Below are positions 47,140 through 48,820 of a stretch of 64,000 nt of DNA, in pieces. Under the pieces are notes generated by a model that saw nothing but the letters and a program-made list of their open reading frames with translations, did not search any database and was not told the origin of the DNA. The translations under genes and the position numbers were made by a program. The DNA is from Fusobacterium varium (GTDB lineage: Bacteria; Fusobacteriota; Fusobacteriia; Fusobacteriales; Fusobacteriaceae), in assembly GCA_002356455.1 (NCBI GenBank), contig AP017968.1, positions 2,170,001 through 2,234,000 on the forward strand. The letters run 5' to 3'. Positions within the stretch are counted from its first letter, which is position 1, and the number at the start of each line of letters is the position of its first letter.

Positions 47140-47952
47140 TTATTTTATTTTCTTAAAAACTGGCTGCATTCCTTCAAAAGAAGTAATATATTTTTTACCT
47201 ATACTTTCTAAAAAGTCATATGCTCTTTTGAAATCCATAGTTAAATACTCTTTTACATGAGCATCTGACCCTATTGTCAAGATTTCTCCACCAAGTTCAT
47301 AATATCTTTTTATGATATCAGTACATGGATAAAATCTATCTTCCTTATATCTATATCCAGAAGTATTAATCTCTATACCTTTTCCTTTTTCTATTAACTT
47401 TTTTAATACAGCATCAATTCTATCAAAATTTTCTTTATAGTTTAACCCTCTATATTTAGGTCCACCATATCTTGTAACAAAATCAAGATGCCCATAAACA
47501 TTAAATTTATTATATAACTCAACATTTTTTAATACATTATCAAAATAAAGTGCCTGTACCTCTTCTTTGGTTTTTCCTTCCTGTATTTCTCCAAAAGCAA
47601 GATCTATTCTATTGATAGCATGACTGGAATTTATTACAAAATCAAAAGGATAGCTGCTTACAATCCCTTCCAGATATTCTCTTGTGTGAGTTTGGACTCC
47701 CACTTCTACTCCAAGTTTTACATCTATATCTTTTCTGTATTTTTCTTTTAATTCCAACACTCTCTTTACATATTTATCCACTTTTAAAACCCATCTATCT
47801 GTCATTCCTTCTATATCATATTCCAGATGGTCAGTAATGGCTATTTCCTGCAAACCTAAAGAAATAGCTTTTTGTATAATCTCTTCCATATCTTGAGTTG
47901 AATCCCCTGAAAATTCACTATGTATATGGTAGTCACTTATAATATGCTTCAA
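47140..47952 (-). CDS. PHP-domain histidinol-phosphatase-like enzyme
   Basis: Metal-dependent phosphoesterase of 270 residues of the PHP family, HisK/HisJ type. Metal-binding motifs are DYHIHSEFSGDS at the N-terminus, ITDHLEYD, VGVQTHTREYLEG, INSSHAI, VYGHLDFVTRYG and GSDAHVKE near the end, which together give the expected His/Asp set. Histidine synthesis genes are not adjacent, so the true substrate may differ. Start is preceded by GGGAGGTT. Confidence 0.85.
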   Translation of the reverse strand: MKHIISDYHIHSEFSGDSTQDMEEIIQKAISLGLQEIAITDHLEYDIEGMTDRWVLKVDKYVKRVLELKEKYRKDIDVKLGVEVGVQTHTREYLEGIVSSYPFDFVINSSHAINRIDLAFGEIQEGKTKEEVQALYFDNVLKNVELYNKFNVYGHLDFVTRYGGPKYRGLNYKENFDRIDAVLKKLIEKGKGIEINTSGYRYKEDRFYPCTDIIKRYYELGGEILTIGSDAHVKEYLTMDFKRAYDFLESIGKKYITSFEGMQPVFKKIK

Positions 47953-48117
47953 AATAAACCTCCCTATAAAAGAGATAAATTATCCCTCATTTTCTATACT
48001 TTAAATATTCATAAATTTATATAACTTAGAATCACTAAATACATAACTAAGGGTATCATAATATATTCAAATTTTCAAGTATAGATAGAAAAAACACTTG
48101 CTTATTTTAAAAATAAA

Positions 48118-48146
48118 AAAGAGAACCATTTCAACTGATTCTCTTC
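48118..48146 (-). terminator. Terminator of the cystatin-like gene
   Basis: Minus-strand AGAGAATCAG and GGTTCTCT arms followed by TTTTTATTTT. Confidence 0.6.
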
Positions 48147-48176
48147 ATTATTTTTTCTAAAGCTGTTAGGATTCAA

Positions 48177-48542
48177 TTACAGAATCCCTTCTATACTTTT
48201 AATTTGAAATTCTCCCTTTATATTTTCATATAATATTACTTTTACAAGATGTTCTACTGGAGGATTTGTCATTGCTTTTTGTTTGCAGATGATGACATGG
48301 TTTTTTCCTGCTACAATTTGCGAACCGCAATATAATACAGGAACATATTCAGCACCTAAGATATTTTTAAAAGCTTCTAGAAAACCTGTTGCTACTTTTT
48401 CAGGTAAAGATACAGGTTCCATTTCTGCAATTTGCCAACCACCTAACATTATTTCTCTATTTTTTTCAATGTTATTTTCAGCATTTGCCATAACTAAACT
48501 ACCTAGAGCAAGAAATAATAGTATAATTTTTTTCATTTTCAT
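48177..48542 (-). CDS. Secreted cystatin-like protein
   Basis: One hundred and twenty-one residues with a cleavable signal peptide (MKMKKIILLFLALGSLVMANA). The mature part follows the plan of a cystatin: Gly-Gly near the N-terminus (MLGGWQIAEMEP), one long helix (PEKVATGFLEAFKNIL), the first-loop QxVxG motif (SQIVAGKNHVIICKQ), and a further strand (HLVKVILYENIKGEF). Cystatins inhibit papain-like cysteine proteases by inserting these three elements. Export to the periplasm or outside would allow it to act on host or competitor proteases, which is inference. GGAGGAT precedes the ATG. Confidence 0.75.
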   Translation of the reverse strand: MKMKKIILLFLALGSLVMANAENNIEKNREIMLGGWQIAEMEPVSLPEKVATGFLEAFKNILGAEYVPVLYCGSQIVAGKNHVIICKQKAMTNPPVEHLVKVILYENIKGEFQIKSIEGIL

Positions 48543-48772
48543 ATCCTCCTTTTACAAGTTTATAATACATATATACTCTATAAAGTTAAAAAAGTCAATT
48601 TATTTAATACTGATAATTTTTTGAAATAATATCTAAATTATATAAAAATATACAAAAAAAAATTTGAGTATCAAAAATTATTTTATGATCAAAATTAAAA
48701 TAACATTTTTTTATAAAAATTATGAATTTTTATTTCAAAGTGTATGCTACTGTGTTTTTTAAACATTCATTA

Positions 48773-48820
48773 TTGACAAAGTACAAAGTGTAGGGTAATA
48801 TTTTATTGTAAACGGTTACA
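48773..48820 (+). promoter_or_regulatory. rbs promoter with LacI-type operator
   Basis: TTGACA at 48773-48778 and TAATAT at 48796-48801 are spaced by 17 bases. TGTAAACGGTTACA at 48807-48820 lies just beyond the -10, in the +1 region. It fits both the RbsR operator and the cre consensus, so repression by the first gene's own product, and possibly catabolite control, is expected. Confidence 0.85.

What the first reader, a model, noticed from the sequence alone, without database searches (positions are those of the whole stretch)
48177..48542. Secreted cystatin-like protein in a Fusobacterium
All three cystatin contact elements can be pointed to: N-terminal Gly-Gly, QIVAG, and a signal peptide. 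Cystatins are mainly eukaryotic; a secreted form in an animal-associated anaerobe could protect against host cathepsins or competitor proteases. Alone on its transcript with a good ribosome site.
Basis: partly seen in the sequence, partly recalled or inferred. Interest (0 to 1): 0.6.

Follow-up and report, generated by a model that had tools for sequence, protein, structure and literature searches.

The report
Exported stefin-like protease inhibitor, probable
This small bacterial gene very probably encodes a cystatin/stefin-type blocker of papain-like proteases that carries an export signal; such bacterial stefins, including one in Fusobacterium, were described in 2009, so it is a real but not a new kind of protein.

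Summary
The ORF is real: 121 codons (likelier start 48536), Sec-type signal peptide ending ANA|E, then LGGW, a helix and QIVAG, with its own ribosome site and terminator. The cystatin reading holds at profile level: no curated model hits the protein alone, but a profile of 15 related domains retrieves stefins and cystatins from the PDB (best E 0.002), and hhalign against stefin A/B and oryzacystatin gives 93%. The AlphaFold model (pLDDT 89) has QIVAG at a hairpin turn; cystatins are the best fold matches (Z 7-7.8), NTF2 folds not far below. A Fusobacteriaceae relative carries the same domain fused to a chagasin, another papain-type inhibitor. The genome has no C1 peptidase, so the target is probably foreign.

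Corrections: a signal peptide is not a contact element; the third element, Pro-Trp, is absent, as in stefins; in a two-membrane cell the signal leads to the periplasm. Kordiš and Turk (2009) already listed a stefin in Fusobacterium varium. Less usual is the signal peptide, which the two nearest relatives lack. The gene occupies a site between hisK and rbsR that lacks it in sibling genomes. Inhibition is untested.

The parts
48180..48536 (-). coding sequence from the likelier start codon (second ATG); stop codon at 48177-48179; the listed ORF starts at 48542
   Evidence: GGAGG to ATG spacing 8 nt for the second ATG, 2 nt for the first
48480..48542 (-). signal peptide, residues 1-21 (M..ANA)
   Evidence: sequence read directly: charged n-region, hydrophobic core, AxA cleavage site; absent from the two nearest relatives
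48180..48479 (-). mature stefin-like domain, 100 aa
   Evidence: AlphaFold2 pLDDT 89; profile matches to stefins and cystatins; fold matches
48435..48449 (-). N-terminal trunk element MLGGW (residues 32-36)
   Evidence: G-G-W and a hydrophobic residue before it recur in most relatives; cf. cystatin C LVGG (own knowledge)
48306..48320 (-). first hairpin loop QIVAG (residues 75-79)
   Evidence: Q nearly invariant and G invariant in 15 domains; at the turn between the first two strands of the model
48118..48146 (-). intrinsic terminator-like hairpin, 11 pairs plus T tail
48085..48690 (.). stretch holding the gene, without a counterpart at the same site in sibling genomes G009 and G010; G008 has other genes there

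Best explanation
It is a stefin-like member of the cystatin superfamily (MEROPS I25), exported through the Sec pathway. After cleavage at ANA|E the mature domain would work like stefin B or cystatin C: the trunk around Met-Leu-Gly-Gly fills the non-primed side of a papain-family active site and the QIVAG hairpin covers the catalytic cysteine, blocking the site reversibly and tightly. Because the bacterium encodes no papain-family peptidase itself, the targets are probably foreign: host cathepsins, or protozoal, bacterial or dietary papain-like enzymes reaching the periplasm or surroundings. Shown: the ORF, motifs, profile-level family relationship, absence of the gene at this site in sibling genomes, and lack of detectable C1 peptidases. 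Inferred: the signal peptide's function, the fold (a prediction), the inhibition, the target and the final location.
For: Profile of 15 family domains against all PDB sequences: stefin A E 0.002 at the top; most of the 25 hits are stefins or cystatins. hhalign against stefin A/B plus oryzacystatin: probability 93%, P 2.8e-7. Relatives L020 and L050 come near the Pfam Cystatin model (18.9 and 18.3 bits; cut-off 22.2). AlphaFold model: helix and four strands with QIVAG at the hairpin; best structural matches are SQAPI, tarocystatin in complex with papain (Z 7.6, rmsd 2.2, 70 residues), cystatin A2 and stefins. The same domain is fused to a chagasin I42 inhibitor (37.5 bits, cut-off 27.2) in G045/L046, which points to a C1 peptidase target. 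No PF00112 or PF03051 hit in the own genome, none for PF00112 in 12 genomes of the genus. Bacterial stefins, including a Fusobacterium one, described in PMC2784779.
Against: The protein alone matches no Pfam model, and its only PDB sequence match is a chance-level phage protein. Profile matches centre on the helix-to-QVVAG stretch. Foldseek finds nothing below E 0.001 and NTF2-like folds reach Z 6.2-6.4; strand 1 is not modelled. Pro-Trp is absent. No inhibition data for any member of this bacterial group in the papers found.
Confidence: 0.7

Rival explanations
1. A cystatin-fold protein that has lost protease inhibition or inhibits another protease class, as SQAPI (aspartic proteases) or many vertebrate cystatin relatives do.
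For: SQAPI is the top VIA-align row (Z 7.8, rmsd 3.8) and weakly matches relatives in Pfam; cystatin folds are often repurposed (PMC2784779).
Against: Both papain-contact motifs are retained in the window protein and in most relatives over deep divergence, and one relative is fused to a chagasin.
Confidence: 0.17
2. It regulates one of the bacterium's own cysteine peptidases, as staphostatins do.
For: A Sec signal in a two-membrane cell delivers it to the periplasm, where own proteases act (inference).
Against: No C1A or C1B peptidase in the genome; stefins are not known to inhibit other cysteine peptidase clans, apart from cystatins on legumain C13, which was not searched (own knowledge). No peptidase gene adjacent.
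Confidence: 0.08
3. Convergent resemblance: an NTF2-like or other helix-plus-sheet protein with a chance QxVxG.
For: NTF2-like and CaMKII-hub folds reach Z 6.2-7.1, within about 1 of most cystatin rows.
Against: Family-wide GGW and QVVAGTNY at the stefin spacing, profile hits dominated by cystatins, chagasin fusion.
Confidence: 0.05

Closest known systems
Bacterial stefins of Kordiš and Turk 2009 (PMC2784779), including Fusobacterium varium
   Same: Stefin-type domain with QxVxG, patchy presence in gut anaerobes, Fusobacteria and Clostridia; a chagasin fusion is also reported there for Bacteroides fragilis
   Different: The window protein carries a Sec-type signal peptide; its two nearest relatives found here (G010, L015) do not. 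Identity with the paper's own Fusobacterium entry was not checked
Stefin A / stefin B (type 1 cystatins)
   Same: G in the trunk, QxVxG followed by x-N, no Pro-Trp, no type-2 disulphides, about 100 aa domain; profile match
   Different: Signal peptide present; a conserved Trp after GG; low overall identity
Cystatin C / chicken cystatin (type 2)
   Same: Signal peptide, about 12-residue trunk before Gly, hydrophobic residues before GG, QxVxG
   Different: No Pro-Trp, no two C-terminal disulphides (only C72 and C86 in the domain)
Chagasin / ICP (I42)
   Same: Same presumed target class; fused to this domain in L046
   Different: Unrelated immunoglobulin-like fold; not present in the window protein

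Membership tests
Cystatin superfamily (I25) | Glycine in an N-terminal trunk | tested here: met
   G34-G35 preceded by Met-Leu; conserved in most relatives
Cystatin superfamily (I25) | QxVxG in the first hairpin loop | tested here: met
   QIVAG 75-79, at the strand turn of the model
Cystatin superfamily (I25) | Sequence homology to known cystatins | tested here: met
   Met at profile level only: PDB hits led by stefin A E 0.002, hhalign 93%; not reached by the single sequence
Cystatin superfamily (I25) | Five-stranded sheet wrapped on one helix | tested here: inconclusive
   Helix and four strands predicted, strand 1 unresolved; cystatins best at Z 7-7.8, NTF2 folds Z 6.2-6.4
Cystatin superfamily (I25) | Inhibits papain-family peptidases | not testable with these tools
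   Needs an assay
Stefin, type 1 (classical) | No Pro-Trp and no disulphide bonds of type 2 | tested here: met
   Second hairpin reads LYENIKGEFQ; only two Cys in the mature domain
Stefin, type 1 (classical) | No signal peptide | tested here: not met
   Sec-type signal present by eye; so it is called stefin-like, not a classical stefin
Cystatin, type 2 | Pro-Trp in the second hairpin and two C-terminal disulphides | tested here: not met
   Neither is in the sequence

The most novel reading that the evidence does not exclude
An exported stefin that a gut fusobacterium acquired as a lineage-specific insertion and that shields its envelope or surroundings from foreign papain-like proteases (host cathepsins, protozoal or competitor enzymes); it could be the first bacterial stefin with a shown function.
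Probability: 0.4. Interest if true: 0.5.

Novelty: new member of a known kind. Interest (0 to 1): 0.33.

Why it matters
Bacterial stefins were predicted in 2009 to protect bacteria against host cysteine proteases, and the papers found here report no test. An exported single-domain example in a bacterium without its own papain-family peptidases is a clean case to test, and the chagasin-stefin fusion in a relative supports the proposed target class.

Tried and rejected
Single-sequence Pfam, NCBIfam and PDB searches gave nothing usable. The genome-contig scan with the single protein found nothing; with a two-row alignment it gave one relative. Weak genus hits L003-L006 were chance, on other genes' frames. 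Viral contigs, phages and plasmids: no relatives of the window protein or of L015; one short Clostridia-type match in a faecal phage-labelled record was not followed. The first AlphaFold model from three sequences left the N-terminus unresolved and was replaced by the 15-row model. An own C1 target was tested for and no candidate found. A tree of the domains groups the window protein with G010 and L015 (support 100/99) but is rooted only at the midpoint, so it does not tell whether the signal peptide was gained here or lost in the other two.

Full report
Observation. The minus-strand ORF 48177-48542 encodes 121 residues. A GGAGG lies 2 nt before the first ATG and 8 nt before the second, so translation more likely starts at 48536. 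The N-terminus is a Sec-type signal peptide ending in AxA (ANA|E; judged by eye). LGGWQ follows after a 12-residue mature trunk, then a helix region and YCGSQIVAGKNHVIICK. The gene has a terminator-like hairpin at 48146-48118 (0.2 expected by chance), the next gene downstream (a histidinol-phosphatase-like protein, here 'hisK') starts at 47952, and upstream lies a divergent LacI-type regulator ('rbsR') leading a ribose-transport operon (gene names from inspection). It therefore looks monocistronic.

Relatives. In 12 genomes of the genus only one other has a relative: G010, 54% identical, 91 aa, QIVRG, no signal peptide. A Ruminococcus MAG contig has one of 99 aa without a signal peptide, 58% identical in its best segment (QLVNG). 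A same-order genome, G090, has a copy split over two frames. Among 391 genomes of the class of that MAG 10 match, several as lipoprotein-like exported proteins with two tandem domains of the type VGGW...PVAYLGSQVVAGTNH. In the window's phylum 7 of 98 genomes match a 15-domain profile, including cystatin-like lipoproteins in G021 and G053 and a fusion protein in G045. The family is real but patchy. GGW (or GxW) and QxVxG-x-N recur in most members, with G58 and N60 of the mature numbering invariant.

Homology to cystatins. The single sequence matches nothing curated. The 15-domain profile searched against PDB sequences returns stefin A (E 0.002), Dictyostelium cystatin A2, tick cystatins, stefin B and other cystatins as most of its 25 hits. 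hhalign against stefin A, stefin B and oryzacystatin-I (sequences supplied from memory) gives probability 93%, P 2.8e-7. Two relatives fall just short of the Pfam Cystatin cut-off (18.9 and 18.3 against 22.2 bits). The matches centre on the helix-to-QVVAG stretch, which limits their weight.

Fold. AlphaFold2 with the 15-row alignment gives pLDDT 89 and helix 27-37 followed by strands 43-56, 58-69, 75-85 and 91-98; QIVAG (54-58) is at the first hairpin turn. VIA-align places cystatins first: SQAPI Z 7.8, tarocystatin in complex with papain Z 7.6 (rmsd 2.2, 70 residues), cystatin A2 7.5, cystatin C, stefins; NTF2-like folds follow at 6.2-6.4 and one CaMKII-hub-like entry at 7.1. Foldseek ranks sialostatin L2 first but at E 0.007. 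The model agrees with a cystatin fold but does not prove it, and strand 1 is unresolved.

Mechanism. [quoted passage not shown] PMC4390278). The window protein keeps both elements, including hydrophobic residues before GG, as in cystatin C (own knowledge). It lacks Pro-Trp, as stefins do. In G045 the same domain is joined to a chagasin-family inhibitor (I42, 37.5 bits, cut-off 27.2), another papain-family inhibitor, which supports the target class; the same combination was reported for Bacteroides fragilis in 2009. The genome has no detectable C1A or C1B peptidase, and none of the 12 genus genomes has a C1A peptidase, so a foreign target is likelier than an own one. In a two-membrane bacterium the signal peptide leads to the periplasm; further release is not shown.

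Origin. In sibling genomes G009 (97% identical hisK protein) and G010 the stretch between hisK and rbsR lacks the gene; window 48085-48690 has no counterpart, and G008 has different genes at the same place (an HxlR-type regulator and a small protein). G010's own copy is elsewhere, near ribosomal protein genes. This fits a lineage-specific insertion or differential loss. G+C is 29.8%, like the surroundings, so composition does not show recent transfer.

What is known. Kordiš and Turk (2009) reported stefins in eight bacterial phyla, among them Fusobacteria (F. varium) and Firmicutes of the class Clostridia, and proposed that they act on host cathepsins. A 2012 review repeats this as needing more experimental data. 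The present protein is a further member, unusual in its signal peptide. Whether the signal was gained in this lineage or lost in the two nearest relatives is open.

Limits. No assay, no signal-peptide predictor, host genus not named by the tools, and identity with the Fusobacterium protein of the 2009 paper was not checked.

Noticed in passing
L046:1132-1752 (G045, same family): Chagasin (I42) domain fused to a stefin-like domain with VGGW and QVVAG in one 206-aa protein; like the fusion reported for Bacteroides fragilis.
   Followed up: partly
L017:1000-1782, L018:1483-2232, L020:1342-2058, L021:1486-2241: Genomes of the Clostridia-like class encode exported, mostly lipoprotein-like proteins with two tandem stefin-like domains; no Pfam model covers them above cut-off.
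   Followed up: partly
L049:1504-1806 and L050:1342-1659: Short lipoprotein-like cystatin relatives (QIVAG / QIVNG) in other genera of the same family.
   Followed up: partly
L008:1498-1759: Stefin-like gene in G090 split over two frames; probable frameshift or decayed copy.
   Followed up: no
window 47970-48691: The hisK-rbsR intergenic site carries different cargo in sibling species: nothing in G009 and G010, an HxlR-type regulator plus a small protein in G008, the stefin-like gene here.
   Followed up: partly
window 48807-48820: Palindrome TGTAAACGGTTACA upstream of the LacI-type regulator, conserved in G009 and G010; probable operator of the ribose operon.
   Followed up: no
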